Shown one piece after another: positions 1,611-31,231 of a stretch of DNA of 31,245 nt. The notes beneath the pieces were generated by a model that was not told the DNA's origin, did no database searches, and saw only the letters and a list, made by a program, of their open reading frames with translations. This DNA comes from a virus: positions 21,787-53,031 of the IMG/VR virus record IMGVR_UViG_3300000117_000023; one strand, given 5' to 3'. The position numbers were made by a program, and so were the translations under genes. How positions within the stretch are numbered: position 1 is the first letter of the stretch; each line of letters starts with the position of its first letter.

Positions 1611-1614
1611 AAAT

Positions 1615-1643
1615 TTTACCATGTTAAAAATATTTATTATATT
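1615..1643 (+). promoter_or_regulatory. Promoter P1 of the glycan island
   Basis: A -35-like TTTACC (1615-1620) is followed by a 17-bp spacer and a -10-like TATATT (1638-1643). The whole element recurs almost unchanged at 8498-8526 and 14972-15000, each time in a rare intergenic gap. A transcript starting near 1650 would carry an AAAGGAG site (1662-1668) ahead of ATG 1679. The box does not fit the TTTG / TAnnTTTG promoter known from Bacteroidetes, so it may be a phage-specific class. Confidence 0.7.
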
Positions 1644-1678
1644 ATAGATATAGTAATTAATAAAGGAGAATAAAGGTT

Positions 1679-2533: not shown

Positions 2534-2534
2534 T

Positions 2535-8492: not shown

Positions 8493-8497
8493 AATAT

Positions 8498-8526
8498 TTT
8501 ACCGATTGAAAAATTTTTATTATATT
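8498..8526 (+). promoter_or_regulatory. Promoter P2 of the glycan island
   Basis: TTTACC (8498-8503), a 17-bp spacer and TATATT (8521-8526) form the second copy of the P1/P3 element. The spacer is less conserved than between P1 and P3, which supports real constraint on the two hexamers. It lies in the 69-bp gap before gmd. The predicted leader contains AGGAG at 8547-8551, 10 bases before ATG 8562. Confidence 0.7.
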
Positions 8527-8561
8527 AAACTATATTAAATACAAATAGGAGAAACAAATTA

Positions 8562-10966: not shown

Positions 10967-10967
10967 T

Positions 10968-11951: not shown

Positions 11952-11956
11952 AAAGA

Positions 11957-12712
11957 ATGAAAATACTTATAACAGGGTCAAATGGTTATATAGGCAAAGC
12001 TTTAACAAACCATTTATTAAAACATGACTTAACACTTTTACATAGAGGTGTATGCGACCTAACAGATGAATGGCAAGTAGATAGATTTTTTGATGAAAGA
12101 TATGACTTGGTTATTCACTGTGCAGCAATGGGAGGCAGTAGACTAAAGTCTGATTCTCCAGACGCTTTAATAGCTAACTTAAAAATGTTTTTAAACCTAT
12201 ATAAACATAAGGATAAAATAGAAAAATTTATCCATTTTGGCTCAGGTGCACAACATCACTCGTTAGAGACTTATTATGGATTAAGTAAGAGGGTAATCTC
12301 AGACTTAATGAATAGTGATAGAGATCGATTTTATAATTTTATAATATATGGTTTATTTGATAAACATGAAATAGATACTAGATTTATAAAGTCTTGTATA
12401 AATAAATGTAAAGATAAAAAACCTATAATAGTTTATAAAAATAAGCAAATGGATTTTTTCCATATGGAAGATCTAATGATATTGATTGACGAATGTATTA
12501 ATAATAAGCTAACAGACCGAGAGTTGGAATGTGTTTATTGGGAAATATTTGACCTATGTAAAATAGCAAGACTTGTTATATCTGAAATGGGTACAGGTGA
12601 ATTAATATTAGGAGAACATGGACTAGACAAGCCATATACTAGAGTAGGAAAAAAATACAGAGCAGGAAATTTGGAAGATAAAATTAAACAAACCATTGGA
12701 GAACTAAAATGA
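11957..12712 (+). CDS. Short SDR nucleotide-sugar reductase/epimerase
   Basis: A compact SDR of 251 residues starting at MKILITGSNGYIG (Rossmann motif GSNGYIG). It continues with VIHCAAMGGSR and a YxxxK pair in TYYGLSKRV. It resembles the 4-keto reductase or epimerase/reductase branch (RmlD, ColC, GDP-fucose-synthase-like proteins) more than the dehydratases, and it is about 50 residues shorter than most. An ATG at 11945 would add four residues and a 7-bp overlap; I prefer 11957 because the Rossmann strand then begins at residue 2, as in the family. In context it could reduce the 4-keto dideoxy sugar produced upstream. That link is inference. Confidence 0.75.
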   Translation: MKILITGSNGYIGKALTNHLLKHDLTLLHRGVCDLTDEWQVDRFFDERYDLVIHCAAMGGSRLKSDSPDALIANLKMFLNLYKHKDKIEKFIHFGSGAQHHSLETYYGLSKRVISDLMNSDRDRFYNFIIYGLFDKHEIDTRFIKSCINKCKDKKPIIVYKNKQMDFFHMEDLMILIDECINNKLTDRELECVYWEIFDLCKIARLVISEMGTGELILGEHGLDKPYTRVGKKYRAGNLEDKIKQTIGELK

Positions 12713-13695
12713 AATCAGCATTTTTATCAGAAATGAGTTTCACAGGTAAAGTACCTAGAAATCATACAAATATGAGAACAGAATTTGCATGGATGGTTGC
12801 ATTAGATGCACATCACCAAAATATAGGTGAGTACAAGCAGGTATCAGGATACGACCATGTATTTATTATTTTACCAAAACTAAGAACAAATTTATCAGCT
12901 GATGCTACAATTCTTGGTAAAGTTGAAAATACAGCATCTGTATTTTATAGTCCTACATTAATTACTGAACTTAAGAAAACCAATGCTAAAGTATACATCT
13001 TACAGGAAGGCCCTTCTTGGCTATTTAATGATTATGAGGTACCACAACAGTTTGACTATATAAATAGTCTTATGTCTTGTGACGGTATATTTGCACATAA
13101 TGAATTGGATGTTAAATTTTATAAGGGAATAACATATGGTAATGTACCAGTTCACGTTATTCCTTCTCTAATGATTGAAGATTTACTTCCAGCTAGTAAA
13201 ACACTAACTGTTGAAAATAAAACTATTATGGGTGGTAATCTATCAAGATGGTATGGTGGTGCACAAAGCTTTTTAGTTTCTAGAATATTTGGAAATCCTA
13301 TTTGGACACAAACAAGCCATTCAACTAGAGAACTTGAAGCTGGAATAGATGGACTTAATCATTTGCCAAGAGTTTCATGGGTAGATTGGATGAAAAATAT
13401 AGGAACATATAAATATGCAGTTCACTTAATGCCAACAGTTGCAGCTGGAACATTTAGTTTAAATTGTGCATATTATGGAATTCCGTGTATTGGAAATAAG
13501 GATGTAGATACTCAAAACACTTGCCACCCAGATTTATCTGTAGATGTAAATGATGTAGAACAAGCCGTTAAACTTGCAATAAGATTAAGAGACGATGAAG
13601 AGTTTTATAGTACATGTTCAGCAATGGCAAGGTTTGGTTATGAAGAAAACTATACAGAAGAAAAATGGAAAGCTAAAATGGAGAATATAGTATGA
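12709..13695 (+). CDS. Probable GT-B type glycosyltransferase
   Basis: This 328-residue protein overlaps its neighbour by ATGA. The pattern suggests a two-Rossmann GT-B fold. The N-terminal half has YDHVFIILPKL, VYILQEGPSWLF and CDGIFAHNELD, and the C-terminal half has IPSLMIED and a donor-side segment (MPTVAAGTFSLNCAYYGIPCIGNKDVD) typical of the nucleotide-sugar-binding end of glycosyltransferase families 1 and 4. The classic EX7E motif is not evident. Position between SDR genes and a GT2 in one transcription unit supports a role in glycan assembly. Sugar donor and acceptor are not readable. Confidence 0.6.
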   Translation: MKSAFLSEMSFTGKVPRNHTNMRTEFAWMVALDAHHQNIGEYKQVSGYDHVFIILPKLRTNLSADATILGKVENTASVFYSPTLITELKKTNAKVYILQEGPSWLFNDYEVPQQFDYINSLMSCDGIFAHNELDVKFYKGITYGNVPVHVIPSLMIEDLLPASKTLTVENKTIMGGNLSRWYGGAQSFLVSRIFGNPIWTQTSHSTRELEAGIDGLNHLPRVSWVDWMKNIGTYKYAVHLMPTVAAGTFSLNCAYYGIPCIGNKDVDTQNTCHPDLSVDVNDVEQAVKLAIRLRDDEEFYSTCSAMARFGYEENYTEEKWKAKMENIV

Positions 13696-14966
13696 TAGAG
13701 AATGTAAGTTTCGTCATAAATACAGCCCGTAATGAGTTAGACAACCTAAAACTATTATTGAAATCCTTACAGAAAAATTTAGATAGAGATACACATCAAA
13801 TTCTAGTGTTTATTGATAGTGATAACGAAGGAACATACGAATGGTTGAAATCTATTAAAAATGATTTTAATGATTTAAAGATAATAACTCATTCATTACC
13901 TCCCTGTATAGGATACTCTAGAAATAATAATCTATTAGTAGAATTAGCTGATAATGAAATAGTAAGTTATTTACAAAGTGACATGGTTATATCTCCTGGA
14001 TATGATACAGATATTCTTCGTGATATAGAAAATAACTGCATATTATCTGCAACCAGAGTAGAACCACCATTACATGGAGAATCTTCTCAAACTATAACTA
14101 AAGATTTTGGACTAGAACCTAATGGCTTTGATTTTGATGAATGGAATAATTATGCTCTAACAGTTAAGCAAGATAAAGAATCTACTTTCTTCTTTGCACC
14201 TATTACATTTTATAAAAGTCTGTGGCTAAGCTTAGGAGGATATGATACATATTTTAGAAGATCTAGAGAAGATTCTGATTTTGTACAACGATGTGTACAT
14301 AAAGGCGTAAAGTTAAAACAAACACATAATGCTATAGTATACCATTTTACTTGTACTTCTTCAAGAGGAAAAGATTGGCACAATCCAAAAAACACAGAAG
14401 CACAAGAAAGAGTACAATTACAAAAACAGGCAGATATAGTAGAAGTTAAACGATTTATTAGAAAATGGGGTAACCTTAATCACGGTGAATCAAAGCTAGT
14501 AAAGTATGATGTAGACTTTACAATTTTAAACTCCATAAATTTTCATCCAAACTTTATTGCACAAATAGAACCTTTGGCATCTAGAGTATGGATAGATTCA
14601 GATTTATCTGAAATAAATGAAATAGTACTAAACGAACATAAATTAGCCAATAAACTTCTTGGTTTTACAGAAGACCAATGGGACACGGCAAAACAGTTTT
14701 ATAATTTAGATGACTATTCAAATGTGTATAAAGATTTAACAAAGGAAAAACTATTACAATATAATGTATTAGTTGAAATAAATGCACTAAAATTTACACA
14801 AGATGATGCAAATGTCCTTAACAGTTTACATAGTATTATTGAAAATACTGAAGTAGGAGACTATGAATACGGTAATTTAATATTTAGAATAAGGTCAAAA
14901 AACACTATAAATTCAACTGAAATGAGTAATCCAGTATTTGATAATAAATTGTTAAATATTGTATAA
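13692..14966 (+). CDS. Family 2 glycosyltransferase with C-terminal extension
   Basis: Residues 1 to about 260 are a GT2 domain with VSFVINTARNELDNL, a phosphate-binding turn (IDSDNEGTYEW), the QSDMVISPGYD segment at the DxD position (SD rather than DxD), and the acceptor-side SREDSDFVQRC. The last 150 residues or so (from about 275) are an extra domain of unknown role with no membrane segment. The gene overlaps the previous one by ATGA and closes the second transcription unit, with promoter P3 starting 5 bp after its stop. The replaced DxD residue may change metal dependence, or the alignment by eye may be off. Confidence 0.8.
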   Translation: MIENVSFVINTARNELDNLKLLLKSLQKNLDRDTHQILVFIDSDNEGTYEWLKSIKNDFNDLKIITHSLPPCIGYSRNNNLLVELADNEIVSYLQSDMVISPGYDTDILRDIENNCILSATRVEPPLHGESSQTITKDFGLEPNGFDFDEWNNYALTVKQDKESTFFFAPITFYKSLWLSLGGYDTYFRRSREDSDFVQRCVHKGVKLKQTHNAIVYHFTCTSSRGKDWHNPKNTEAQERVQLQKQADIVEVKRFIRKWGNLNHGESKLVKYDVDFTILNSINFHPNFIAQIEPLASRVWIDSDLSEINEIVLNEHKLANKLLGFTEDQWDTAKQFYNLDDYSNVYKDLTKEKLLQYNVLVEINALKFTQDDANVLNSLHSIIENTEVGDYEYGNLIFRIRSKNTINSTEMSNPVFDNKLLNIV

Positions 14967-14971
14967 AACAT

Positions 14972-15000
14972 TTTACCATGTTAAAAATATTTGTTATATT
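14972..15000 (+). promoter_or_regulatory. Promoter P3, placed for leaderless transcription
   Basis: TTTACC (14972-14977), 17 bp and TATATT (14995-15000) match P1 in nearly every base including the spacer. A start 7-8 bases downstream of the -10 box falls at about 15007-15008, directly before ATG 15009, and no ribosome-binding site is present. The mRNA is therefore predicted to begin at or almost at the start codon. The -35 box begins 6 bp beyond the preceding stop codon. Confidence 0.68.
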
Positions 15001-15008
15001 ATAAATAT

Positions 15009-15458
15009 ATGAAAATAAAAGTACAAATCGCAGAATCTTGTAAGATTCACAAAGACGTAACAATAGTAGAACCAGTAAATATGTATGGTTGTGAAGTTAA
15101 ACAAAATGCATTCATAGGTCCATTTGTAGAAATACAGAAAGACGTTACAATTGGAATAAATTCACGAATAAGCAGTCACACATTTATATGTTCAGACGTT
15201 GAAATTGGAGATAATTGCTTTGTTGCACATGGTGTAATGTTTATTAACGATAAATTCGACGCACCTTTACAGGATTGGATAAGTAGAAAAACTAGAATAG
15301 GTAATAATGTTAGAATAGGTTCTAATGCAACAATACTTCCAGTAGACATAGGATACGGTGCAGTAATTGGAGCAGGATCCGTTGTAACTAAGGATGTTCC
15401 AGCCAATACAATAGTGTATGGAAATCCAGCAAAAATAATGGGGAAAACAAATGAATAA
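15009..15458 (+). CDS. Left-handed beta-helix sugar N-acyltransferase (WlbB/FdtC-like)
   Basis: A 149-residue hexapeptide-repeat protein. Runs of [LIV]-G-x-x-x repeats (IGPFVEI, IGINSRI, IGDNCFV, IGNNVRI, IGSNATI, IGYGAVI, IGAGSVV) span most of the length, and it ends with DVPANTIVYGNPAKIMG. That is the pattern of the acetyl-CoA-dependent acyltransferases that modify amino sugars on nucleotide carriers, and the His in CFVAHGVMF is a likely catalytic base. An upstream TTG at 14991 would extend it into the promoter, so ATG 15009 is used. It overlaps the Gfo/Idh gene by 8 bp. Together with the next two genes it resembles WlbB in the diacetamido-uronate pathway. Confidence 0.87.
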   Translation: MKIKVQIAESCKIHKDVTIVEPVNMYGCEVKQNAFIGPFVEIQKDVTIGINSRISSHTFICSDVEIGDNCFVAHGVMFINDKFDAPLQDWISRKTRIGNNVRIGSNATILPVDIGYGAVIGAGSVVTKDVPANTIVYGNPAKIMGKTNE

Positions 15459-16314
15459 ACAAGAAAAAATTGGATTAATCGGATATGGTTATTGGGGTAA
15501 AATTTTATATAAGACTTTACTTAAGTTAGGATATGAAAATGTAACAGTTTGTGATGTATCAGGAAATGGTGATATAAAAAACTATTCTGAGTTGGAAGTT
15601 TCGCATGTAATGATTGCAACACCACCATCTACACATTATGAAATTTGTGACCACTTCTTAAGAAGAGGTGTAAACGTATTTTGTGAAAAGCCACTAGTAA
15701 CTGAGTATGAAGAAGCTTACAGACTATATGAAGTAGCAGAAAAAACAGGAGCAAAATTATTCACAGATTGGACGTTTACATATAATTATGCAGTTCAACG
15801 ATTAAAACAAGAGTATGATGCAGGTTTATTAGGAAAAATAGAATCTATTTCTATGCATAGATATAATGTAAATATTACACATATCGTTGATGGTACCACA
15901 TGTAAATGGGACTTAGCATGTCATGATGTTTCAATAATACAATATTTAGTTGGAGTAAAACCTGTACAAGTTGATTGGACAGAGTATAGTAAGAGAATGA
16001 ATGGTCCTGATAGTGCGTTTGGTATATTAACATATAAAGATTTTGCAGCAACAGTAAATGTTTCATGGGTATATGGAGACAAATTTAGAGAATGTGTATT
16101 TGATTTTGAAAATGCAACTGTAATATGGGATGATAAAACACAAACAATGACCTACTACACAAAGGCTGAATCTCATTCACATAGACAAGAAACTGTGGAT
16201 TATGCATCATTTCCTTCACCACTTGAAAATTCTATAAACAACTTTTTGAGTGAAAATACTGCAACAGCTAATAAAGAAATAACATTACAAACTTTAGAAA
16301 TATTAGAGGATTAA
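15451..16314 (+). CDS. Gfo/Idh/MocA-family sugar dehydrogenase (WlbA-like)
   Basis: A 287-residue NAD(P)-dependent oxidoreductase. The dinucleotide site is GLIGYGYWG near residue 8, the family signature CEKPL has K80, and D154/H158 in WDLACHDVS fit the catalytic D-x3-H of the family. Members such as WlbA oxidise the C3 position of an NDP-sugar to a ketone, ready for transamination. It is somewhat shorter than the usual 310-350 residues, with the loss at the C-terminal end. Its position between an acyltransferase and a DegT aminotransferase is the arrangement expected for making an N-acylated 3-amino sugar. Confidence 0.86.
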   Translation: MNKQEKIGLIGYGYWGKILYKTLLKLGYENVTVCDVSGNGDIKNYSELEVSHVMIATPPSTHYEICDHFLRRGVNVFCEKPLVTEYEEAYRLYEVAEKTGAKLFTDWTFTYNYAVQRLKQEYDAGLLGKIESISMHRYNVNITHIVDGTTCKWDLACHDVSIIQYLVGVKPVQVDWTEYSKRMNGPDSAFGILTYKDFAATVNVSWVYGDKFRECVFDFENATVIWDDKTQTMTYYTKAESHSHRQETVDYASFPSPLENSINNFLSENTATANKEITLQTLEILED

Positions 16315-16317
16315 ACT

Positions 16318-17496
16318 ATGGTAAAATTTAATGACTTAACAGCACAATGGCATGAAATAAAAGATGCAGCACTTCCAAGAATAAACACCATGTTTGAAAA
16401 TTCAGCATATGTTAATGGACCTGAAGTACAAAAGTTTGAAAAAAACTTTGCAAAGTGGAATGGTAATAAACATTGCATTGGAGTATCAAGTGGTTTAGAT
16501 GCCTTAAGAGTTGCAACCCAAGCACTTAAGTATACAGGGCATGTTCACATATACACTCAAGCAAATACATATATTGCAACAGTATTAGGTCCAGACCAAG
16601 CCTTGAATGGTAATTGTACTATTCATTTAATAGACCACGATCAATACTTTCAACTTGATACAGAAAAATTGCTTAATAAACTAACAACAAACACTGAAAA
16701 GTTTTGTGATGACCATCACTTAATTATTCCAGTTCATTTGTATGGCCATCCATGTGATATGGAAACAATTATGAAGTATGCACAAAGTTTTGGTTGTGAC
16801 GTATTAGAAGACTGTTCACAGGCGCATGGAGCAAAGTGTAATGGCAAACAAGTCGGAACATTTGGAGATATTGCAGCATTTTCTTGTTATCCTGGTAAAA
16901 ACTTAGGAGCAGCAGGTCAAGCTGGAGTAATAACAACAAACGATGATACACTTGCAGAAAGATGTAATGAAATAAAAGAAGTAGGTTCTAAGGTAAAATA
17001 TGTACACAATGTTAAAGGTGGAAACTATAGAATAGACCCTATTCAAGCAATAGTTTTAGATGAAAAATTAAAGCATTTAGATTTATGGAATGCAAATAGA
17101 AGAAAATTTGCAGAACATTATAGCTATATAAATAATCCTGAAATATCTGTTCCATTATTAGAACCAGCTCCTTGGTGTACAGAACAGGTATTCCATATTT
17201 TTCCAATATTAGTCGGAGATGGAGAAGTTGATAGGCAAGAATTAATGAATTATATGCAAGACCAAGGATCCCAAGTAGGAATACACTATCCTATTTGTAT
17301 AGAAGAAACAGGAGCATATAGTGATTTAGGTAAAACTAATCACAATCCTAGAACAAGAGGAAATGCAGACAGACTGGTAAGTTTACCTATCCATCCATTT
17401 ATGTCATCAAGTGATACAGAACAAGTTGTACACATATTAAACCAGTGGGTTAGTGATAAAAAACTTGCACAAGAAGCTGGAGCTTTTAAAGACTAA
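16318..17496 (+). CDS. DegT/DnrJ/EryC1 PLP-dependent sugar aminotransferase
   Basis: A 392-residue aminotransferase, the usual length. It has the N-terminal FNDLTAQWHEIKDA, the substrate-binding YVNGPEVQKFE, GVSSGLDALRVA, the cofactor-binding LEDCSQAHGA, and the PLP lysine K194 in CYPGKNLGAAGQAG. Unlike the protein at 9551-10966, it keeps the lysine and so should be a true aminotransferase. This subgroup (WlbE, FdtB, QdtB) aminates C3-keto sugars using glutamate. With the dehydrogenase and acyltransferase upstream it completes a ketone, amine, amide sequence. It is the last enzyme of the glycan island. Confidence 0.9.
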   Translation: MVKFNDLTAQWHEIKDAALPRINTMFENSAYVNGPEVQKFEKNFAKWNGNKHCIGVSSGLDALRVATQALKYTGHVHIYTQANTYIATVLGPDQALNGNCTIHLIDHDQYFQLDTEKLLNKLTTNTEKFCDDHHLIIPVHLYGHPCDMETIMKYAQSFGCDVLEDCSQAHGAKCNGKQVGTFGDIAAFSCYPGKNLGAAGQAGVITTNDDTLAERCNEIKEVGSKVKYVHNVKGGNYRIDPIQAIVLDEKLKHLDLWNANRRKFAEHYSYINNPEISVPLLEPAPWCTEQVFHIFPILVGDGEVDRQELMNYMQDQGSQVGIHYPICIEETGAYSDLGKTNHNPRTRGNADRLVSLPIHPFMSSSDTEQVVHILNQWVSDKKLAQEAGAFKD

Positions 17497-20933: not shown

Positions 20934-23900
20934 ATGAAAAAGTTATTATTAATATTGTCGTTAGTACCAACATTATTGTTTAGTCAAGGAAGTTGGATCC
21001 ACATCCAATTAATGACAGATAATTATCCATCTGAAACAAGTTGGAACATTACACCTCCTGGTGGATCACCTATTATTGTAGAGAACGATAGCAACATGCT
21101 ACCAAATACAATGTACGATACTATTGTTTTTCTTGGTGGAACTATTGTTGCTGGTATATATGACCAATTCGGTGACGGATTAGGTTCATCTCAATGGGGT
21201 GGTACTGACGGTTGGTTCATGATTAGTAATTCATGTCAAGACACTTTAATGTATGTTGCAGGAAACTTTGGAGATACTTTGGTACAAACATTAACTGTAG
21301 CTCCTTGTGCTCCTCCAACTATAGGATGTTTAGATCCTAACGGATTAGATTATGACTCCACTGCATATCTGCCTGGTCCTTGTACATACCCAGCATGCGG
21401 TGGTTTATTATCTGACACGGTTCAGCAAACTTGTTTACCAACTGGTCAAACACTAGTACAATTCTTTTGGCAAAACGATACATCAAACGGTAACTGTAAT
21501 CCAGTTAGATTTTGGTATTGGAACGAAAATGGTGTAGGTCCTTTTCAATATGGACTTGCTCCCAACCAACAAGATTTTGCAGTATATGCGGGTAATGGCC
21601 AAATGCCTCCTAACTGGTCTGTAGAACATTATGGTATGGTTGAATTTGCAGATAGTACATTTTCAGATACTATGGCATATACACCTACTGCATGTATAGC
21701 TGGTTGTACTGATCCAACTCAACCAACTTATAATCCTTGGGCAACATTCGATGATGGTTCTTGCTCAGGAACATCTTGTGATACAAACTTAACACACCAA
21801 ATAACAATGGAAATCACTTTTGATAACTGGCCAAGTGAAACTGGTTGGTCTATGACAAGTGGTGGTTATGGAGTAATACAATCTGAACTTCCTGGTGCAT
21901 ATAATTTTAACGATATAGGTCAAACTTACACTTACAATTTCTGTGTGGATAAATTTGCAGGATTTGAGTTAATTGTAACAGATTCATATGGTGATGGAAT
22001 GGCCGGTTCTACATCAGGTGGAACATTAGATGGTATGGTTGTTATTTATGATTGTTTAGGAGATACTATTTGGTGGATGGACAATCCTGGATTTGGAACT
22101 ACATTATATTCTGGAGTACAATTTGGTGTACCATGCTTGTCATCTCCTCCAGTACCTGGTTGTATGGACGATGATTATCAAGAGTATGACCCATTAGCTA
22201 CTGTCGACGATTCAACTTGTACAAATTTACATATTTATGGGTGTACGGATCCGTCTGCATTCAACTATGACCCTACAGCTTCAATAAATGATGTTGTTCC
22301 GGATTGTAGTTATATATTAGAAATAAGAGATGCAGGTGGTGATGGATGGGGTAATTCTTATATTGGTGTTTATCAAAACGGAATAAACTTTGGTACATTC
22401 ACAATGGGACCAGGAAACTATGTTCAGTCGTTCCCTTTAACATTAGATTCGGATGCTCCAGTTCATGTATATTATTTTGAAGTTGGAGGACCACAACAAC
22501 CACCACAAGAAGTACAATTCCAAACATGGCATAATTCTTTCACACTTATGTTGAATGACCCAGATAGTACTATATTGATTGAAGAAGGAACCAATCCTTT
22601 TGCAAACAATGGACAAGGAGCACTACAATCATTCCAGTCTCCGTTTTGGACAACTTATTCTGCAATACCTTTTTGTGGTGATTATTGTATAGAAACAATT
22701 TTAGGATGTATGGATTCATTATCATTCAATTACAACGATTCTGCTAATGTAGATGATGGTAATTGTGAACCATTTATTTTTGGTTGCACAAACGATTTAG
22801 CATTCAACTACGATTCTTTAGCTAATACAGATGATGGCTCATGTGTTCCAATTTCTTATGGTTGTTTGGATCCAATAGCAGACAACTTTAATAGTTTAGC
22901 AAATACAGATGATGGTTCATGTTACTACATTGGTTGTACTGATATTGCAGCTTGTAATTATGATGCTTCTGCTACAGTGAATAATGGATGTCAATATCCT
23001 CCACAATACTATGATTGCAACAGTGTATGCTTATTAGATACAGATGGTGATGGTATATGTGATGAGTTAGAAATACCTGGTTGTACTAATCCTATTGCTT
23101 TGAACTATGATATTGCAGCAACAGACGATGATGGAAGTTGTACATTACCAATATACGGCTGTACAGATCCACTTGCTTTCAATTATAACTCTTTAGCAAA
23201 CACAGATAACGGATCTTGCGTACCAGTTGTAAATGGCTGTACAGATCCTTTGGCTTTCAACTACGACCCTATTGCAAATACTGACAACGGTTCATGTATT
23301 GCTATTGTTTATGGATGTATGGATCCTAACTCATTTAACTACAATCCACTAGCAAATACTGATAACGGAGCCTGCATACCATTTATTCTAGGATGTACAG
23401 ATACTTCGGCAATTAATTATAATCCTTTAGCAAATACATCTGATGGTTCATGTATTGCACAGCTACTTGGATGTACTGATTCAACAGCATTCAACTATAA
23501 CCCTCTTGCTAATACAAACGATGGATCTTGTATTGCTATATTGTTAGGGTGTATGGATGCTACTGCATTTAACTACGATCCTAATGCTAATACAGACGAT
23601 GGAAGCTGTATTCCTATTGCACTTGGCTGTACAGATCCTACACAGTTTAACTATGATGCTAATGCGAATACAGATGATGGATCTTGTATACCTTATATCT
23701 ATGGATGTATGGACGCAACAGCATTTAATTACGATCCATTAGCTAATACTGACAATGGTAGTTGTATTCTTGTAATATTTGGATGTACAGACTCAACGGC
23801 ATTAAATTATAACATCTTAGCTAATACTGATAATGGAACATGTATATTACCTATTATTGGTTGTACTGATGTAGGTGCATGGAATTACGATCCCTTAGCT

Positions 23901-24317
23901 AACACTTCAGATTCTACTGCATGTCTATATGATGCAGGTTGTTATGGAGGTCCTGGTAATCCTTATTGGTTAAATGATGGATGCTTTGCATGGGTAATCG
24001 ATGTAGATGATTATTGTTGTACTAACGAATGGGACGCAAGTTGCCAATCAATGTATGACTATTGCCAATTAGGTTGGCCAACATCAGTAGAAGATATAAG
24101 TTCTATGGGAATTATGGTTTATCCAAACCCAACTGGAGATATATTAAATATAGATACAAGACTAGAAGTTGAGGTAGAAATATATGACCTTATGGGTAAA
24201 TTAATGACAAAGGAAAATTCTAAAAGAATTAATTTGTCAAAATATCCAAACGGTGTATATAATTTGATACTTATATATAATAACAAAAGATTTACGACAA
24301 GGGTAATAAAACAATGA
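20934..24317 (+). CDS. Large secreted repeat protein with type IX secretion sorting domain
   Basis: 1127 residues. A signal peptide (MKKLLLILSLVPTLLFS, then Q18) leads to two related beta-rich domains (DNYPSETSWN and DNWPSETGWS) and to about 19 Cys-containing repeats of the form GCTDPxAFNYDPxANTDDGSC. These include eleven exact 26-residue units at about 716-1001. One TSP3-like Ca-binding stretch, DTDGDGICDELE, splits the repeats. A Cys-rich segment (DDYCCTNEWDASC) and a C-terminal domain of about 75 residues follow: YPNPTGDILNI, DLMGKLM, YPNGVYNLI. This is the type A sorting domain recognised by the Bacteroidetes type IX system, so the product should go to the cell surface or outside. A role in adhesion, surface masking or biofilm is inferred. 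Confidence 0.9.
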   Translation: MKKLLLILSLVPTLLFSQGSWIHIQLMTDNYPSETSWNITPPGGSPIIVENDSNMLPNTMYDTIVFLGGTIVAGIYDQFGDGLGSSQWGGTDGWFMISNSCQDTLMYVAGNFGDTLVQTLTVAPCAPPTIGCLDPNGLDYDSTAYLPGPCTYPACGGLLSDTVQQTCLPTGQTLVQFFWQNDTSNGNCNPVRFWYWNENGVGPFQYGLAPNQQDFAVYAGNGQMPPNWSVEHYGMVEFADSTFSDTMAYTPTACIAGCTDPTQPTYNPWATFDDGSCSGTSCDTNLTHQITMEITFDNWPSETGWSMTSGGYGVIQSELPGAYNFNDIGQTYTYNFCVDKFAGFELIVTDSYGDGMAGSTSGGTLDGMVVIYDCLGDTIWWMDNPGFGTTLYSGVQFGVPCLSSPPVPGCMDDDYQEYDPLATVDDSTCTNLHIYGCTDPSAFNYDPTASINDVVPDCSYILEIRDAGGDGWGNSYIGVYQNGINFGTFTMGPGNYVQSFPLTLDSDAPVHVYYFEVGGPQQPPQEVQFQTWHNSFTLMLNDPDSTILIEEGTNPFANNGQGALQSFQSPFWTTYSAIPFCGDYCIETILGCMDSLSFNYNDSANVDDGNCEPFIFGCTNDLAFNYDSLANTDDGSCVPISYGCLDPIADNFNSLANTDDGSCYYIGCTDIAACNYDASATVNNGCQYPPQYYDCNSVCLLDTDGDGICDELEIPGCTNPIALNYDIAATDDDGSCTLPIYGCTDPLAFNYNSLANTDNGSCVPVVNGCTDPLAFNYDPIANTDNGSCIAIVYGCMDPNSFNYNPLANTDNGACIPFILGCTDTSAINYNPLANTSDGSCIAQLLGCTDSTAFNYNPLANTNDGSCIAILLGCMDATAFNYDPNANTDDGSCIPIALGCTDPTQFNYDANANTDDGSCIPYIYGCMDATAFNYDPLANTDNGSCILVIFGCTDSTALNYNILANTDNGTCILPIIGCTDVGAWNYDPLANTSDSTACLYDAGCYGGPGNPYWLNDGCFAWVIDVDDYCCTNEWDASCQSMYDYCQLGWPTSVEDISSMGIMVYPNPTGDILNIDTRLEVEVEIYDLMGKLMTKENSKRINLSKYPNGVYNLILIYNNKRFTTRVIKQ
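22704..22931 (+). repeat. Short run of 78-bp coding repeats
   Basis: Units start with the GGxTGx Gly-Cys codons at 22704, 22782 and 22860 (steps of 78 bp), and a diverged one begins at 22932 after 72 bp. Each encodes one GC-D-x-x-FNY-x-x-x-AN-DDGxC unit of the secreted protein. It is a separate block from the longer array at 23079. Confidence 0.8.
23079..23936 (+). repeat. Tandem array of eleven 78-bp coding repeats
   Basis: Unit starts are at 23079, 23157, 23235, 23313, 23391, 23469, 23547, 23625, 23703, 23781 and 23859, an unbroken 78-bp period. Each encodes 26 residues with two Cys, an FNYxPxANT core and DGSC. Codons differ between copies more than the protein does, so the units are old and held by selection. 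It is not a CRISPR array: units are coding and contiguous. Confidence 0.9.
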
Positions 24318-24730
24318 TAAAATTAAAAAAAGTACTACAAGAAGTCACAGACCATAATTTTGAAATGAAGTATGTGAAAGATAAAAATGCTAATAAAGTT
24401 ATCGACGTATTACAAGGCTTGGGCTTTGGAGTTGGAAGAGGCGATGTCGCAGCAGCAAACAAAAGACTTAAAACATACGAAGGTGGTAGAATGTTTAAGC
24501 ACATGCAATATCACGTTGTACGGGGTAAGTCTGATGTCTATTTTATATATCAGACACAACATTACTTAAGAGATAGCAGTGTTGATGTCACTAAAGTATC
24601 AATTGATATATATGATGACTATCAAGGAAAAACAAGTGCCAAGCGTAAAGAAATAGGAAATGCACTAGTACCAACAGAAAAATTCCTAAAAGGACTTAAT
24701 CGCGTTAATGTACTAGACAAAGCGAGCTAA
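24314..24730 (+). CDS. Putative capsid-targeted phage protein of unknown function
   Basis: This 138-residue protein starts on the ATGA overlapping the stop of the secreted repeat protein. It begins MIKLKKVLQE-V, the peptide shared with genes at 26531, 27867 and 30935, with L-Q-E as a candidate prohead-protease site. The remainder is basic with an alpha/beta pattern (KVIDVLQGLGFGVGRGD, DVTKVSIDIYDDY) and no family I recognise. It sits between two genes for exported proteins, so the signal-like N-terminus is not a secretion signal: it is too short and charged. A structural or internal head role is inferred only from the N-terminus. Confidence 0.65.
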   Translation: MIKLKKVLQEVTDHNFEMKYVKDKNANKVIDVLQGLGFGVGRGDVAAANKRLKTYEGGRMFKHMQYHVVRGKSDVYFIYQTQHYLRDSSVDVTKVSIDIYDDYQGKTSAKRKEIGNALVPTEKFLKGLNRVNVLDKAS

Positions 24731-26147: not shown

Positions 26148-26531
26148 ATGACAAAGTCAAAGAATACATCATTAAAAATATTTTGTGGATATTTGTTAAT
26201 TTTAGCCTTAATGATATGTTGTAATAGTGTAAATGCCCAAAGCCCTTGTGAAAGTGATGATATTTGTGTAGTACAGTTTAATGCTGGATTTAATGAAACG
26301 AACAAAGTAGCTTGGCTTGGAGAATTAGGAGAATGTGATACAAAATTTATAGACATTCAAAAAGATGCAACAGCAGCAGGTAAGTATAAAATTGTTGTTG
26401 TGCCAACCATTGTTATTTATATTGAAGGTGAAGAAGTTGCAAGGTTTCAAGCAAATATAATGATGCAAATGGAAGCTACAAAAAAGGAAGTACAGTCGAA
26501 AATTGATGAAATCATAATGGATGCATTTTAA
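26148..26531 (+). CDS. Secreted thioredoxin-fold protein lacking the CxxC motif
   Basis: 127 residues. A signal peptide ends VNA with Q31 as the first mature residue, so the protein is periplasmic or surface. The mature part follows the thioredoxin plan: strand CVVQFNAGFN, then a helix, strand KFIDIQKD, and the cis-proline segment VVVPTIVIYIEGEEVARF. Where the redox CxxC should be the sequence reads N-E-T-N, so it cannot act as a disulfide oxidoreductase there. Two Cys near the mature N-terminus (SPCESDDIC) could pair. ATG 26148 is used because TAGGAG stands 8 bases upstream. A binding or scaffold role is more likely than catalysis. Confidence 0.7.
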   Translation: MTKSKNTSLKIFCGYLLILALMICCNSVNAQSPCESDDICVVQFNAGFNETNKVAWLGELGECDTKFIDIQKDATAAGKYKIVVVPTIVIYIEGEEVARFQANIMMQMEATKKEVQSKIDEIIMDAF

Positions 26532-27232
26532 TGATTAAACTAAAGGATATATTAAATGAAGGAGTCTACGACCCAGGAATCTTTAAAGCAATATTCACTG
26601 CAGGTGGACCAGGTAGCGGTAAGTCTTACGCTGCTGCAACACTATTTGGTATGCCAGAAAAAATGCCATTCGTCTCGGCAAAAGGACTTAAGTCAGTTAA
26701 TAGCGATAAATACTTTGAAACGTATCTTAAAATGAGTGGATTATCACAAGATATAGCATCATTAAAACCTGCAGAATTTGAAAAAGCAATGCAGTTAAGA
26801 AAAAAAAGTAAATCAGTTAGAGACACTGCACTTAAAAATTATATAAATGGAAGGCTAGGCTTGCTTATTGATGGTACAGGTAAAGACTATGGAAGTATTT
26901 CAAAACAGAAAACAAGATTGCAAGATGTAGGTTATGACTGTTTTATGATTTTTGTAAATACTGACCTAGATGTAGCATTAGAACGAAACTATGACCGAGA
27001 AAGAAAACTACCAAGCGAATTGGTAAAGTCATCTTGGCAAGCAGTACAAAATAATATGGGAAAATTTCAAGGATTATTTGGAGCAAGTAACATGCTAATC
27101 GTTGACAATTCAGAATACAAAGAATTTTCAAACATTGTTAAAAAAGGTGCAAATGAGTTTACAAATAGAAAAATACAAAATCCTATTGCAAAGGCTTGGA
27201 TAAAAAAAGAACTTGAAATAAGAAAAAAATAA
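26531..27232 (+). CDS. Zeta-toxin-like P-loop kinase with capsid-targeting-like N-terminus
   Basis: 233 residues. It opens MIKLKDILNE-G, the shared peptide ending in L-N-E before Gly. The P-loop GGPGSGKS is at 25-32 with K31, then a Lid/helix region and VNTDLDVALERNYDRERKLP, as in zeta-toxin and related nucleotide/sugar kinases. Zeta toxins phosphorylate UDP-GlcNAc and poison wall synthesis; whether this one does is unknown, and it lacks an epsilon antitoxin next to it. The absence of an antitoxin would suit a protein kept inside the capsid and released in the next host. The gene starts on the last base of the previous stop. Confidence 0.8.
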   Translation: MIKLKDILNEGVYDPGIFKAIFTAGGPGSGKSYAAATLFGMPEKMPFVSAKGLKSVNSDKYFETYLKMSGLSQDIASLKPAEFEKAMQLRKKSKSVRDTALKNYINGRLGLLIDGTGKDYGSISKQKTRLQDVGYDCFMIFVNTDLDVALERNYDRERKLPSELVKSSWQAVQNNMGKFQGLFGASNMLIVDNSEYKEFSNIVKKGANEFTNRKIQNPIAKAWIKKELEIRKK

Positions 27233-27870
27233 TGATAAAAATGACAGAAATATTAACATTAGATAAATTAGTTTATTCTACAGATGTTCCTAAAAAGCAT
27301 CGAGAAATGATGGCGAATATACCTAATACAATATTTGCAGATTTTGATATAAGTCAGTATAAATCCACTCCACCACCTAAAAATAGTTCTAATCAAACAT
27401 TTAGAGAAATGATTAGTTTAGATAAAATTATAATGCCACTAAACCAAATAAAGGCAGCAGACCATATAGATAATTACTTTAAGGAATATTTCACACAAAA
27501 CAAGTTAGATTTTCCTGCAAAGGATGTTAGAAAAATAGTACAAGATTCCAGACCTATTATTCAAACGTTAAAGTATTTTTATAATAGACCTAGACCAGTA
27601 CAAATTGCAAAGGCTCTTTCTCTAAAGTTTCATAATGAGCCACTAGAAACTGCAAAAACTCCATCTTACCCATCAGGACATTCTACTCAAGCTTTCTTAG
27701 TTGGAAAATATCTATCTGCTATATATCCTGAACATTCAGTAAATATTATGAAACTAGCAAACGATATATCTAAGAGTAGACTTGCAGCTAATGTACATTA
27801 CCCAACAGATTCAATATTTGGTGAAAGAATTGCATTAGCTTTATATTTATATATGAGAAATAAACTATGA
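27232..27870 (+). CDS. PAP2-family phosphatase, soluble type
   Basis: 212 residues with the full PAP2 active site: K114-x6-R121-P122 (KYFYNRPRP), P147-S-G-H150 (YPSGHST), and S182-R-x5-H189-x3-D193 (SRLAANVHYPTD). This fold removes phosphate from lipids, nucleotides or other small molecules. No strong membrane segments are present, so it resembles the soluble acid phosphatases. It starts MIKMTEILTLDKL, close to its neighbours' N-termini but without the Glu at the cleavage site. It starts on the last base of the kinase gene stop, so kinase and phosphatase may be made together. Confidence 0.88.
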   Translation: MIKMTEILTLDKLVYSTDVPKKHREMMANIPNTIFADFDISQYKSTPPPKNSSNQTFREMISLDKIIMPLNQIKAADHIDNYFKEYFTQNKLDFPAKDVRKIVQDSRPIIQTLKYFYNRPRPVQIAKALSLKFHNEPLETAKTPSYPSGHSTQAFLVGKYLSAIYPEHSVNIMKLANDISKSRLAANVHYPTDSIFGERIALALYLYMRNKL

Positions 27871-28682
27871 TACATTTGAAAAATATATTAAGCGAAGGAA
27901 GGCCAATGTTTCAAGAAAAGCCAAACCAGTTTGCATATTTAGACTTTAAGAAATGGGCATACAAAAACAAAAAGTCTGTTAAAGGCATATTAAGTAAGGC
28001 TGTAAAGGATGGTAGAGATCCTGGAACAGATATATTTCTTGCACTAAGACAGGTTTGGTTAGCATGGGCAAATAAAAATGCTAAAGAATGGAGTAGAATT
28101 CCTAATAAAGGACCTCAAGGAAAAGATTTTGGTAGAGCATTAGCTGTAATGATGAAGAGTGATAACTTAATTATTAAGAAATCAGGTAATACACTTACTC
28201 AACTTGAATCTGCCACTCCTGAAAATGCACCAGCATATTTCAAAGGATTATCTAAGAAAGAAAAAGATGAACGTGAGAGAGTAATTAAAAAAAGAAGTAA
28301 AATGAAATCTAACGATCCTGATGCATACAAGCCATTTAAAAGTGATAAAGGTAAAAAAACAAAACCTTCTTCATCTACTCTAAAGTTTAAAAAAATGTTT
28401 GGCGAATTAAACGAAGATGAACAACAGTTATTTGCTGAAAAATTATCTGCAAAAATTAGAAAGTCATTAAAAAACAAAGCAGCAAAAGCAAATGCTCCTA
28501 TGGGTGCACTAACAACAATATATAATAAAGGTTTAGCAGCATGGAGAACAGGTCATAGACCAGGTGCAAGTCAGCATGCATGGGCCATGGGAAGAGTAAA
28601 TTCAGTATTAACCGGTGGTAAAGCTAGAAAAGTTGATGCTGCTCAGTGGAAACAAATATCTAAACATAGGAAGAAAAAATAA
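27867..28682 (+). CDS. Putative capsid-targeted protein with marine-phage domains of unknown function
   Basis: 271 residues, very basic. It starts MIHLKNILSE-G (shared peptide with L-S-E before Gly). A middle segment has the pattern APAYFKGLSKKEKDER, DPDAYKP and KKTKPS (three separate stretches). This is a kind of sequence I associate with phage and giant-virus domains of unknown function; I believe DUF5824, unverified. The C-terminal part (YNKGLAAWRTGHRPGASQ, WAMGRVNSVLTGGKARK) is another conserved block seen in marine phages. A further L-N-E lies at GELNEDEQ, which may also be a cut site. Packaging into the head is inferred. Confidence 0.68.
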   Translation: MIHLKNILSEGRPMFQEKPNQFAYLDFKKWAYKNKKSVKGILSKAVKDGRDPGTDIFLALRQVWLAWANKNAKEWSRIPNKGPQGKDFGRALAVMMKSDNLIIKKSGNTLTQLESATPENAPAYFKGLSKKEKDERERVIKKRSKMKSNDPDAYKPFKSDKGKKTKPSSSTLKFKKMFGELNEDEQQLFAEKLSAKIRKSLKNKAAKANAPMGALTTIYNKGLAAWRTGHRPGASQHAWAMGRVNSVLTGGKARKVDAAQWKQISKHRKKK

Positions 28683-28898: not shown

Positions 28899-30440
28899 AT
28901 GAAATCAAAAGAAATACGAAAGATAATCTCAGAAGAAGTAAACAGAGTCCTTGAACAAGAACAAGGTCTTGTTGAATTATCCAAATTAAACGAAGCTAAA
29001 CTTAGAAAAGGCGACATCATTAAAATGCAGGACGGAGAATATGGTGTAGTTAATAAACTTAAAGGTAAAGTAGCTTATATAAAACTTAAGTCAAGTCCTG
29101 GAACTTTCCATCCAATTGAAGCTGATAGAACTACCTACAAAGGTAAACACAAGGGTAAAGATTTATATTTAGAATCTTTGAATGAAGCTAGAGACTTTGT
29201 AGTAATAGACCCAAGAGGTAATGCAAAGCCAGTTGGCATGAAAATACAAGGTGCACAATATGTTAAGAAGATGGGTGGCCCTAGAAAAGGATACCATTTA
29301 GTATTGTCAAAAAATGCAAAGAAAGCTAGAAGAGCAGTAGAAAAGCATGGAGCTACATCTTCAAAAACTCAAAATTTAATGTTTGATTTAATGTATGAAG
29401 GTCCACAAGTTGCACCTCAAAAAAGAATGGAGTTCGGTGTAGAATATGTAGATGGTAAAGGTAAACCTAAAAAAGATAACTCATTAATTAAAAGGTTTAA
29501 AACAAAAGCCCTAGCAGATAAATATGCAAAAAAAGGAAATAAGATAGATAAGGTTGGTGGAAAGTACACAGTTGTTCAGGTACCAGTTCAAGAGATATCA
29601 GAAGTAGATTATCAGTCAAAATTATCTAGAGGTCATAAACCAGATCACTACCAATTAGGAACATCAGACTTTAAATCATTTAATGAAGGTACTAAATTAG
29701 CAAGAGGTCTTAAGCCACTGTTAATGATAGGTACAAAGATAACTAAAAAAATTGGTGAAGAAGCACTATTAAAACTTTCAGATAAGTTTGACAGAATAGA
29801 CGATGAATATGCTGGTGATATAGCAAGTCATCTAGATATGGCAATTGAATTGATGCAAGACGGCGACAAAGGAGCTGCTACTAAAATGTTAAAGCAATTC
29901 AATAAAAAATGTAAAGATGTACTAAAAGGAAAATCAGTTGGATCTGTATTTGAAGGCAAATTAACTGAAGCTAAAGAAGATTATAAATACAAGAAACAAG
30001 TTGGCAAAGCGTTTGATAAAATAAATGATGCGATGTTTAACTTTAGACATGCATTTGGAATTAAGCAATTAACAAACGACGATATGAAGTTAAAGAAAAA
30101 GTTCGAAGCGTTACAAGCTAATATATTTGCGCTGCAAAGAGAAATGAGGAAGGACGGTTTATCTGAAGGTTCAATTACTGAAGCTACAAGTCTTTGGAAA
30201 AAGTTTGATGAAAAGCAAAGATTGTATGGTGATGGAATGGATGTAGAAATGGAAATGAAAACAATCACTAAAGATATAGGTCAGCTTTATAAAGATATGG
30301 AACAAGAAGCTGAACCAGAAGGTGGCAAAGTTGCTAATAAATATGGCAAACAGATAGATAAACTTGAAAAATCTTATAAAAAGAAAAAAGCCGAACTTAA
30401 AAAAATAATGGCTAAAATAGACAAGTTGGAACAATACTAA
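28899..30440 (+). CDS. Large putative internal head protein with multiple protease-like sites
   Basis: 513 residues. The N-terminus (MKSKEIRKIISEEVNRVLEQ) is a charged amphipathic helix like the one at 19161. Sites matching T4 prohead-protease consensus (L/I)-x-E before Ala/Gly follow: LNE-A (30-33), LNE-A (94-97), LTE-A (355-358), LSE-G (421-424) and ITE-A (426-429). ISE-V (233-236) and FNE-G (261-264) are weaker. They fall between apparently separate domains, including a small beta domain at 33-96 and a charged coiled coil at 430-513. It could be a polyprotein cut during head maturation, or a scaffold/prohead core. It is Lys-rich. No family name is recognised. Confidence 0.72.
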   Translation: MKSKEIRKIISEEVNRVLEQEQGLVELSKLNEAKLRKGDIIKMQDGEYGVVNKLKGKVAYIKLKSSPGTFHPIEADRTTYKGKHKGKDLYLESLNEARDFVVIDPRGNAKPVGMKIQGAQYVKKMGGPRKGYHLVLSKNAKKARRAVEKHGATSSKTQNLMFDLMYEGPQVAPQKRMEFGVEYVDGKGKPKKDNSLIKRFKTKALADKYAKKGNKIDKVGGKYTVVQVPVQEISEVDYQSKLSRGHKPDHYQLGTSDFKSFNEGTKLARGLKPLLMIGTKITKKIGEEALLKLSDKFDRIDDEYAGDIASHLDMAIELMQDGDKGAATKMLKQFNKKCKDVLKGKSVGSVFEGKLTEAKEDYKYKKQVGKAFDKINDAMFNFRHAFGIKQLTNDDMKLKKKFEALQANIFALQREMRKDGLSEGSITEATSLWKKFDEKQRLYGDGMDVEMEMKTITKDIGQLYKDMEQEAEPEGGKVANKYGKQIDKLEKSYKKKKAELKKIMAKIDKLEQY

Positions 30441-30935
30441 ATGAAACTAGCAGACATAATATCAGAAAAAAATAAAGGCCTTTGGGCAAATATCCATGCA
30501 AAAAAGAAACGTGGAGAAAAGTCAAATCCTAATTCTAAAGAATATAAAAGAGCTAAGGCAGCAGGCAAAAAGATTAACAGAAAAGAAAGTGTTATCTATA
30601 GAAGTAAGAAGCTCGGTTTAGAAATTGTAGAACATTCAGAACCAGTAATATTTCAAGAGGCAGAATACCAAGGTAAAAAGGTTGAACTTAACAAGGTTAG
30701 ACGTGGTGGAAAAGGTAAATTTTATGTATATGCTAAAAACCCAAAAGGAAATATCGTAAAAGTTGCATTTGGTGCAAAAGGTATGGCAATAAAAACAAAA
30801 GACCCAGATCGTAGACGTTCATTTAGAGCTCGTATGGGTTGCGATAAGAGTCCTGGTCCTAAACATAAGGCAAACTATTGGTCATGTAGAATGTGGTCTG
30901 GACCAGACGCAGTTAAAAATATGTTGAAAAAATAA
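30441..30935 (+). CDS. Putative capsid-targeted protein with two basic marine-phage domains
   Basis: 164 residues. It begins MKLADIISE-K (I-S-E at 7-9), followed by GLWANIHAKKKRGEKSN, a segment I recognise as common in marine T4-like phages. A second site, FQE-A (71-74), leads into a basic domain with VRRGGKGKFYVYAKN, DPDRRRSFRARMGC and KANYWSCRMW, with C134 and C149. The parts look like two small modules separated by a protease site. Their role is unknown; strong positive charge suits DNA binding within the capsid. The gene starts directly after the previous stop. Confidence 0.72.
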   Translation: MKLADIISEKNKGLWANIHAKKKRGEKSNPNSKEYKRAKAAGKKINRKESVIYRSKKLGLEIVEHSEPVIFQEAEYQGKKVELNKVRRGGKGKFYVYAKNPKGNIVKVAFGAKGMAIKTKDPDRRRSFRARMGCDKSPGPKHKANYWSCRMWSGPDAVKNMLKK

Positions 30936-31231
30936 TGATAAAACTACAAAACATATTAAATGAAGCAAATATAAAGGTTAACAATGTTACTGCTAATTTC
31001 AGAGTAATAGCTACGCCTACTTCATTAAACAATATGATTAGATTTATAGCGGCTTCAAGTAAAGATCTTGACATCTTACAAGATATAAGTAAAGATGAAA
31101 TTAGAGAAGCTATTCTAAAATATGCCAACAAACAATTCAGAGAAATAAAATTTTTACCTGTTAAATATGACGAAGGTGCAGGGTACGGATTTAAAATTGA
31201 TTTGAATACAGTTCTTAAGAGGTTAAAATAA
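30935..31231 (+). CDS. Small putative capsid-targeted protein
   Basis: 98 residues starting MIKLQNILNE-A, an ideal match to the T4-like signal (L-N-E before Ala). The rest (VTANFRVIATPTSLNNMIR, DILQDISKDEIREAI, FLPVKYDEGAGYGFKID) has an alpha/beta pattern without a known family. The start codon overlaps the last base of the previous stop, and the next gene overlaps this one in the same way, so it belongs to a coupled string. Confidence 0.68.
   Translation: MIKLQNILNEANIKVNNVTANFRVIATPTSLNNMIRFIAASSKDLDILQDISKDEIREAILKYANKQFREIKFLPVKYDEGAGYGFKIDLNTVLKRLK

What the first reader, a model, noticed from the sequence alone, without database searches (positions are those of the whole stretch)
26531..27232. 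Toxin-type kinase predicted to travel inside the capsid
A zeta-toxin-like P-loop kinase carries the capsid-type peptide (MIKLKDILNE before Gly) and has no antitoxin gene beside it. Packaged enzyme release at infection would act on the new host before any transcription, for example on cell-wall sugar nucleotides. This combination of tag and toxin fold suggests an injected effector.
Basis: partly seen in the sequence, partly recalled or inferred. Interest (0 to 1): 0.7.

Follow-up and report, generated by a model that had tools for sequence, protein, structure and literature searches.

The report
Phage kinase tagged for capsid delivery
A marine bacteriophage gene makes a small kinase whose first ten residues match the address label that T4-type phages use to load proteins into the head, so the enzyme is probably carried in the virus particle and injected with the DNA; what it phosphorylates is unknown, and the cell-wall-toxin idea is not supported.

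Summary
The ORF is real (26531-27232, 233 aa, dN/dS about 0.1) and matches Pfam Zeta_toxin above cut-off. Its tag MIKLKDILNE|G has the register of the T4 IPIII capsid targeting sequence: hydrophobic at 4, 7, 8 and Glu at 10. Those positions are conserved in relatives while 5 and 9 drift. The same tag sits on unrelated neighbouring proteins and, in related contigs, on a prohead core protein. It also marks non-structural enzymes found by published mass spectrometry in Synechococcus phage S-CREM2 virions, including an NMNAT-like cytidylyltransferase. In many related phages the kinase lies 6-11 kb from the gp21 prohead protease, and its next gene (or a fused domain) is an NMNAT-like nucleotidyltransferase plus a KxDG ligase-like domain.

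So packaging is well supported, though this protein was not itself shown in a virion. "Zeta toxin" is only superfamily-level: the model fits bacterial polynucleotide kinase and seryl-tRNA kinase better than zeta, UDP-GlcNAc-specific residues appear not conserved, and the polynucleotide-kinase arginine is absent. Best reading: a T4-type internal head cargo kinase working in a co-packaged nucleotide or RNA-end module. New variant of a known kind.

The parts
26531..26560 (+). 10-codon capsid-targeting-type propeptide MIKLKDILNE; predicted cut after Glu10, before Gly11
   Evidence: register h4,h7,h8,E10 as in T4 IPIII (PMC9026906); low entropy at 4,7,8,10 and high at 5,9; residues 1-10 mean pLDDT 50 against 86 for 11-20
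26561..27232 (+). mature P-loop kinase, residues 11-233 plus stop: Walker A GGPGSGKS, Asp59, DGTG at 114-117, lid RNxxRxR 152-158
   Evidence: PF06414 36.4 bits; model pLDDT 85.2, pTM 0.81; VIA-align Z 16.4 to CthPnkp, 15.6 PSTK, 13.6 zeta, 13.1 T4 Pnkp
24314..24730 (+). tagged neighbour MIKLKKVLQE|V, unknown function
27232..27870 (+). PAP2 phosphatase with tag-like N-terminus MIKMTEILTL lacking Glu10
   Evidence: Pfam PAP2 8.9e-14; orthologues also lack Glu10
27867..28682 (+). tagged neighbour MIHLKNILSE|G with DUF5824
28899..30440 (+). tagged neighbour MKSKEIRKIISE, 513 aa, unknown function
30441..30935 (+). tagged neighbour MKLADIISE with KGLWANIHAKKKRGEK motif and a weak, below-cut-off DUF5754 match
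30935..31231 (+). tagged neighbour MIKLQNILNE|A, unknown function

Best explanation
It is an internal-head cargo enzyme of a T4-type phage, probably of a marine Bacteroidota host. Residues 1-10 act as a capsid targeting sequence that draws the protein into the prohead core; the gp21-type prohead protease cuts after Glu10 and leaves a 223-residue kinase in the capsid, which enters the next host with the DNA, as T4 Alt and the IP proteins do. There it most likely phosphorylates a nucleotide-type substrate (a nucleic-acid 5' end is my first guess, a nucleoside or dinucleotide such as nicotinamide riboside or NAD the second), working with co-packaged or fused NMNAT-like nucleotidyltransferase, KxDG ligase-like protein and HAD phosphatase, before phage genes are transcribed. 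Shown by sequence: tag, its conservation, gene context, fold class. Inferred: cleavage, presence in this virion, injection, substrate.
For: Tag register equals the T4 IPIII CTS: targeting at residues 4 and 7, processing at 8 and 10, L/I-x-E (PMC9026906), and the same positions are conserved here. Divergent relatives keep LxE|G although the upstream sequence changes: MKTFAELQE|G in Melnitz, MIPFILKE|G in HTVC008M; E10 invariant and L8 over 90% in A1. It is kept even where the kinase is an internal domain (Atu_ph07 SEVTE|G, L056 NPLTE|A, L061 PLKE|G). Prohead protease in 12 of 15 and MCP in 14 of 15 related contigs; kinase 6-11 kb from gp21 in most, amid terminase, portal and core genes; core protein MKLKRILKE, protease ...QMIVE, MCP ...QLISE share the logic. 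S-CREM2: 5 of 25 MS-detected virion proteins against 1 of 115 undetected have the exact register, Fisher p=0.0007 (PMC10665884). A citidylyltransferase was also seen in S-SM1 virions (PMC3037559). Atu_ph07 gp53 (tag-kinase) lies in CDS 31-76, where 29 proteins were found in virions (PMC6102473). Partners. Nucleic-acid kinase fold.
Against: No relative of this kinase was seen by name in a virion proteome (Atu_ph07 Table S5 could not be read). The window's record is a 62-kb fragment in which no head genes were seen. E10-G11 is part of a wholly conserved stretch, so conservation of the site could partly serve the fold. The window lineage lacks the NMNAT-ligase gene next to the kinase (one relative, G001, has it elsewhere). 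T4 Pnkp Arg38 is replaced by F/L/Y in all 39 relatives. The ligase-like domain got no convincing structural match. No late promoter was demonstrated. Non-structural proteins in CsCl-purified virions can be contaminants, as the S-CREM2 authors say.
Confidence: 0.6

Rival explanations
1. Packaged zeta-type toxin: the injected kinase phosphorylates UDP-GlcNAc or related cell-wall sugar nucleotides of the new host.
For: Zeta_toxin is the best Pfam hit, 36.4 bits; zeta is the top Foldseek hit by E-value; Lys31, Asp59, the acidic residue of the DGTG motif and lid arginines match zeta K46, D67, E116, R158/R171, essential per PMC6356619.
Against: By structural Z, CthPnkp (16.4) and PSTK (15.6) stand above zeta (13.6) and PezT (12.7). 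Zeta E100 and T128, in contact with UNAG, map to variable positions 98 and 126 (mapping by motif offset only). No antitoxin, and conserved partners are nucleotide enzymes.
Confidence: 0.08
2. Packaged NAD-metabolism enzyme: the kinase makes NMN (or phosphorylates an NAD-type compound) and the coupled NMNAT-like enzyme makes NAD, countering NAD-depleting defences or feeding injected ADP-ribosyltransferases at entry.
For: Next gene in 38 of 75 loci, or fused in 6, is an NMNAT-like protein; its profile hits in PDB are headed by NMNATs; NMNAT-like proteins found in cyanophage virions; zeta-like AvrRxo1 makes 3'-NADP (titles and abstracts of PMC5087710 and PMC4938570).
Against: Sequence and fold matches are to polynucleotide, seryl-tRNA and zeta kinases, not to nicotinamide riboside kinases, though these are not excluded. 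The window lineage keeps kinase and NMNAT apart.
Confidence: 0.22
3. Ordinary cytoplasmic phage kinase; the N-terminus is not a packaging tag.
For: No direct virion detection of this protein; many phages carry Pnkp-type kinases not known to be packaged (PMC7824862).
Against: Tag register, its presence on unrelated neighbours, head-gene linkage and the S-CREM2 correlation.
Confidence: 0.12
4. The protein is a prohead core component whose kinase activity is incidental or lost, acting in head assembly.
For: It carries the same kind of tag as core proteins and lies near them.
Against: Walker Lys, Asp59, D114, T116 and lid Arg residues are invariant in 39 relatives, which points to catalysis.
Confidence: 0.06

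Closest known systems
T4 internal head proteins Alt, IPI, IPII, IPIII with capsid targeting sequence cut by gp21
   Same: 10-residue N-terminal tag with the same register and L/I-x-E cut site; T4-type prohead protease in related contigs; enzyme cargo (Alt is an ADP-ribosyltransferase)
   Different: cargo is a zeta/Pnkp-type P-loop kinase in an island of many tagged genes; presence in virion not shown for this phage
Virion-associated enzymes of Kyanoviridae: S-CREM2 SAM hydrolase, APH-like kinase, cytidylyltransferase (PMC10665884); S-SM1 citidylyltransferase (PMC3037559)
   Same: same tag register on the S-CREM2 enzymes; NMNAT-like enzyme of the same kind as the kinase's conserved partner; seen by MS in virions
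   Different: the S-CREM2 kinase is APH/ChoK-like, a different fold family; those authors did not tie the detection to a targeting sequence in the sections read
Zeta/PezT toxins (PF06414)
   Same: P-loop kinase superfamily and catalytic Lys, Asp, acidic DGTG-motif residue and lid Arg
   Different: no antitoxin, UNAG-contact residues apparently not conserved, viral cargo context
Polynucleotide 5'-kinases (CthPnkp, T4 Pnkp) and PSTK
   Same: best structural superposition; HAD phosphatase and ligase-like partners
   Different: Arg38 of T4 Pnkp replaced by F/L/Y
Polyvalent proteins of phages (Iyer et al. 2017, PMC5512222)
   Same: multidomain injected conflict proteins; relatives L068, L071, L074, L086 are 1213-1756-aa fusions with this kinase at or near the N-terminus
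   Different: the terms 'zeta toxin' and 'P-loop kinase' do not occur in its main text

Membership tests
T4-type capsid-targeted internal head protein | 10-19-residue N-terminal propeptide with targeting residues 4 and 7 | tested here: met
   L4 and I7, entropy 0.19 each over 34 distinct N-termini (PMC9026906)
T4-type capsid-targeted internal head protein | L/I-x-E cleavage motif ending the propeptide | tested here: met
   L8-N9-E10|G11; Glu10 in 39 of 39, L/I at 8 in 38 of 39
T4-type capsid-targeted internal head protein | S77 prohead protease encoded by the phage | tested here: inconclusive
   met in 12 of 15 related contigs; the window's own record is a fragment that was not searched with the family, and no such gene was seen in its ORF list
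T4-type capsid-targeted internal head protein | present and processed in virions, ejected | not testable with these tools
   only siblings tested by others (PMC10665884, PMC6102473)
Zeta/PezT UNAG kinase toxin | Pfam Zeta_toxin over curated cut-off | tested here: met
   36.4 against 22.3 bits
Zeta/PezT UNAG kinase toxin | catalytic K46, D67, E116, R158, R171 equivalents | tested here: met
   K31, D59, D114 (Asp for Glu), R152/R156/R158 invariant (residues from PMC6356619)
Zeta/PezT UNAG kinase toxin | UNAG contacts E100 and T128 | tested here: inconclusive
   positions 98 and 126 vary freely, but the mapping is by motif offset, not by superposition
Zeta/PezT UNAG kinase toxin | adjacent antitoxin gene | tested here: not met
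   neighbours are a weak thioredoxin-like secreted protein and a PAP2 phosphatase
Polynucleotide 5'-kinase (T4 Pnkp type) | P-loop kinase fold with D35 base | tested here: met
   Z 16.4 to CthPnkp, 13.1 to T4 Pnkp; the equivalent Asp of the Atu_ph07 relative is aligned to D35
Polynucleotide 5'-kinase (T4 Pnkp type) | Arg38 equivalent three residues after the base | tested here: not met
   F, L or Y in 39 of 39; Ile in Atu_ph07
NadR/NRK-type nicotinamide riboside kinase | sequence or fold match to NRK | tested here: inconclusive
   not among listed matches, which does not exclude it; NMNAT-like partner present

The most novel reading that the evidence does not exclude
T4-type phages of marine bacteria inject a complete small pathway, a kinase, an NMNAT-like nucleotidyltransferase, a KxDG ligase-like enzyme and a HAD phosphatase, each with a capsid tag or fused as a gp21-cleavable polyprotein, to repair RNA ends or restore NAD before any phage gene is expressed.
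Probability: 0.3. Interest if true: 0.85.

Novelty: new variant of a known kind. Interest (0 to 1): 0.62.

Why it matters
If right, a 10-residue N-terminal rule (hydrophobic 4, 7, 8; Glu 10) predicts which proteins T4-type phages carry into cells, and turns dozens of 'hypothetical' genes near head clusters into testable injected effectors. The kinase with its NMNAT-like and ligase-like partners would be a candidate pre-transcriptional counter-defence. The rule can be tested at once on existing virion mass-spectrometry data.

Tried and rejected
(1) UDP-GlcNAc toxin as main reading: rejected on partners, structural ranking and the variable UNAG-contact positions. (2) Classical Pnkp membership: not filed, Arg38 missing. 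(3) Ligase-like domain: AlphaFold model only pLDDT 72, pTM 0.51; Foldseek found nothing; VIA-align listed several RNA ligases at Z about 4 over the KTDG region, too weak to use; its assignment rests on motifs KTDG and EGxxF only. (4) Atu_ph07 gp53-58 as ADP-ribosyltransferases: only a YRGM-like motif seen by eye, no Pfam, PHROG-function or PDB match, left as a guess. (5) Late promoters TATAAATA: not above chance, 13 found, 9.3 expected. (6) The window record has no NMNAT-ligase gene, but it is a fragment. (7) PADLOC: no hit for the window kinase; one weak VakA hit in L080, not followed. (8) Avoidance of internal LxE in mature kinases (30 seen, 58.6 expected) against enrichment in untagged proteins (161 seen, 125.5 expected) is suggestive, but the sequences are related, so it is not used as proof. 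(10) The Atu_ph07 supplementary table could not be read.

Full report
WHAT IS THERE. The ORF at 26531-27232 (+) begins MIKLKDILNE|GVYDPGIFKAIFTAGGPGSGKS and ends in TAA. Its start and that of the next gene overlap the preceding stop codon, which suggests translational coupling. The window lies in a 61,953-base virus fragment, G000. Against four orthologues dN/dS is 0.10-0.14. It matches Pfam Zeta_toxin (36.4 bits, cut-off 22.3) and PHROG 12810 and 2071.

RELATIVES. 79 distinct loci in IMG/VR, plus Pelagibacter phage HTVC008M, Methylophilales phage Melnitz and Agrobacterium jumbo phage Atu_ph07. In 39 aligned relatives E10, K31, D59, D114, T116, G117, R152, N153, R156, R158 and W169 are invariant.

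THE TAG. In T4 IPIII ten residues suffice for packaging; residues 4 and 7 target, 8 and 10 govern processing, and gp21 cuts after L/I-x-E (PMC9026906). Here residues 4, 7, 8, 10 are L, I, L, E. Across 34 distinct kinase N-termini the entropies at 4, 7, 8, 10 are 0.19, 0.19, 0.32, 0, but 2.97 and 1.81 at positions 5 and 9; positions 2, 3 and 6 are also fairly conserved. Divergent relatives have other leaders but keep the site: MKTFAELQE|G (Melnitz), MIPFILKE|G (HTVC008M), and even inside fusions SEVTE|G (Atu_ph07), NPLTE|A (L056), PLKE|G (L061). The exact register begins members of 20 of 338 ORF families in the fetched loci, against 0-2 at shifted positions. In G000, 8 of 14 ORFs from 24.3 kb of the window through about 1.8 kb past its end have a hhxE tag (0.6 expected), elsewhere 2 of 59 (2.5 expected). 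The tag is poorly ordered in the model (mean pLDDT 50 for residues 1-10, 86 for 11-20). Caveat: Glu10-Gly11 is contiguous with a conserved segment, so the site's conservation is not independent of the fold.

HEAD CONTEXT. Related contigs carry the S77 prohead protease (12 of 15) and the gp23-type capsid protein (14 of 15). From the coordinates the kinase is 6-11 kb from gp21 in most of them; in L015, L046 and L056 the order is kinase, NMNAT-ligase (or second kinase), terminase, portal, protease, core protein (names by position and sequence, gp21 and gp23 by Pfam). Head proteins there follow the same rule: core MKLKRILKE, MKLRNLLKE or MSQFDIRKWKSSLNE, protease ...QMIVE, capsid ...QLISE or MSNIGNLLNE.

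INDEPENDENT CHECK WITH PUBLISHED VIRION PROTEOMES. Synechococcus phage S-CREM2 (Kyanoviridae) virions were analysed by others (PMC10665884, Table 3). I read 86 kb of its genome. The exact register is on 5 of 25 detected proteins and 1 of 115 undetected (Fisher p=0.0007). The five are SAM hydrolase MKDFDSFLEE, gp13 MKDLHSFLTE, APH-like kinase MKRFDAFLTE, gp136 MQTFSMFFSE and cytidylyltransferase MKNFSSFLTE; the last is described there as an NMNAT homologue. A citidylyltransferase was also found in S-SM1 virions (PMC3037559). The S-CREM2 authors caution that such proteins might be co-purified. In Atu_ph07 the kinase is part of gp53 (numbering from AUZ94813 = gp1, consistent with ClpX gp2 and topoisomerases gp4-5 in the paper), which starts MKWNDLNE, heads a row of six paralogues starting M[RK]W[ENQ][QD]L[NT]E, and lies in CDS 31-76, where 29 virion proteins were identified (PMC6102473). 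Whether gp53 is among them I could not read.

WHAT THE KINASE IS. AlphaFold2 model pLDDT 85.2, pTM 0.81. VIA-align: CthPnkp Z 16.4 (165 residues, 2.5 A), archaeal seryl-tRNA(Sec) kinase 15.6, zeta 13.6, T4 Pnkp 13.1, PezT 12.7. Foldseek ranks zeta first by E-value. Profile search of PDB sequences: CthPnkp, PSTK, zeta, T4 Pnkp, with adenylate kinases between. Zeta residues K46, D67, E116, R158 and R171 have counterparts; E100 and T128 fall on variable positions by motif offset (residue roles from PMC6356619; columns). T4 Pnkp Arg38 is F, L or Y. It is therefore a separate subfamily; its substrate cannot be read off.

PARTNERS. In 38 of 75 loci the next gene, and in six loci a fused downstream segment, encodes an NMNAT-like HxGH domain (PDB profile hits headed by NMNATs) followed by a domain with EKTDGQN and EGxxF motifs reminiscent of covalent nucleotidyltransferase ligases; the ligase assignment is not confirmed structurally. 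L079 and L080 fuse the kinase to an NT5C-type HAD phosphatase, and in HTVC008M a tagged NT5C HAD protein, a DUF6267 KWDG protein and an NMNAT-like protein lie within 13 kb of the kinase. The window's own record has a HAD-like protein starting MIKLKDILNN about 6 kb downstream with a PHROG 415 (polynucleotide kinase) match; its relatives start MIKLKDILHE|G. In the window lineage the NMNAT-ligase gene is not adjacent; the 170-kb relative G001 has it near its head genes.

VERDICT. Packaging: strongly supported by inference, about 0.8. Injection: follows from T4 precedent. Function: nucleotide or RNA-end phosphorylation preferred, NAD chemistry next, cell-wall toxin unlikely. Known principle (capsid-targeted internal proteins), new cargo type and conserved cargo module.

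Noticed in passing
window 27232-27870: PAP2 phosphatase whose N-terminus resembles the tag but lacks Glu10 (MIKMTEILTL); orthologues MIKLSEILLL and MISLVDIVNL also lack it. Perhaps targeted but not cut.
   Followed up: partly
window 20934-24317: 1127-aa secreted repeat protein with a type IX secretion C-terminal sorting domain (Por_Secre_tail 3.9e-11): a phage-encoded T9SS substrate, implying a Bacteroidota host.
   Followed up: partly
window 981-17496: About 16 kb of sugar-nucleotide and glycosyltransferase genes, including a split transketolase (5843-6580 and 6577-7479).
   Followed up: partly
L006 2910-4873 (G000 14.9-16.9 kb): GroEL-family chaperonin gene (Cpn60 2e-69) with a GroES-like ORF just upstream in the phage record.
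   Followed up: partly
L068 4142-9412, L071, L074, L086: 1213-1756-aa fusions: kinase, GDTV domain, NMNAT-like and ligase-like domains (and in three an NRDR-containing Ntn-hydrolase-like stretch), with LxE-like sites between some domains; possibly a gp21-cleavable cargo polyprotein.
   Followed up: partly
L126 7704-10313 (S-CREM2 gp12): Cas9-annotated protein detected in virions; its start looks misplaced or extended, since a tag-like LRFASFMAE|AA lies about 25 residues in. No Pfam match at E 0.01.
   Followed up: partly
L117 39484-46418 (Atu_ph07 gp53-gp58): Six tandem paralogues, each with an M[RK]W[ENQ][QD]L[NT]E tag, in an MS-defined virion gene cluster; function unknown.
   Followed up: partly
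L056 10666-11871, L061 9676-10866, L064 548-1717: A second kinase paralogue behind a DDGP domain, again preceded by LxE|A/G, follows the first kinase directly in L056 and L061.
   Followed up: partly
window 30441-30935 and relatives: KGLWANIHAKKKRGEK motif recurring right after tags in several cargo proteins.
   Followed up: no
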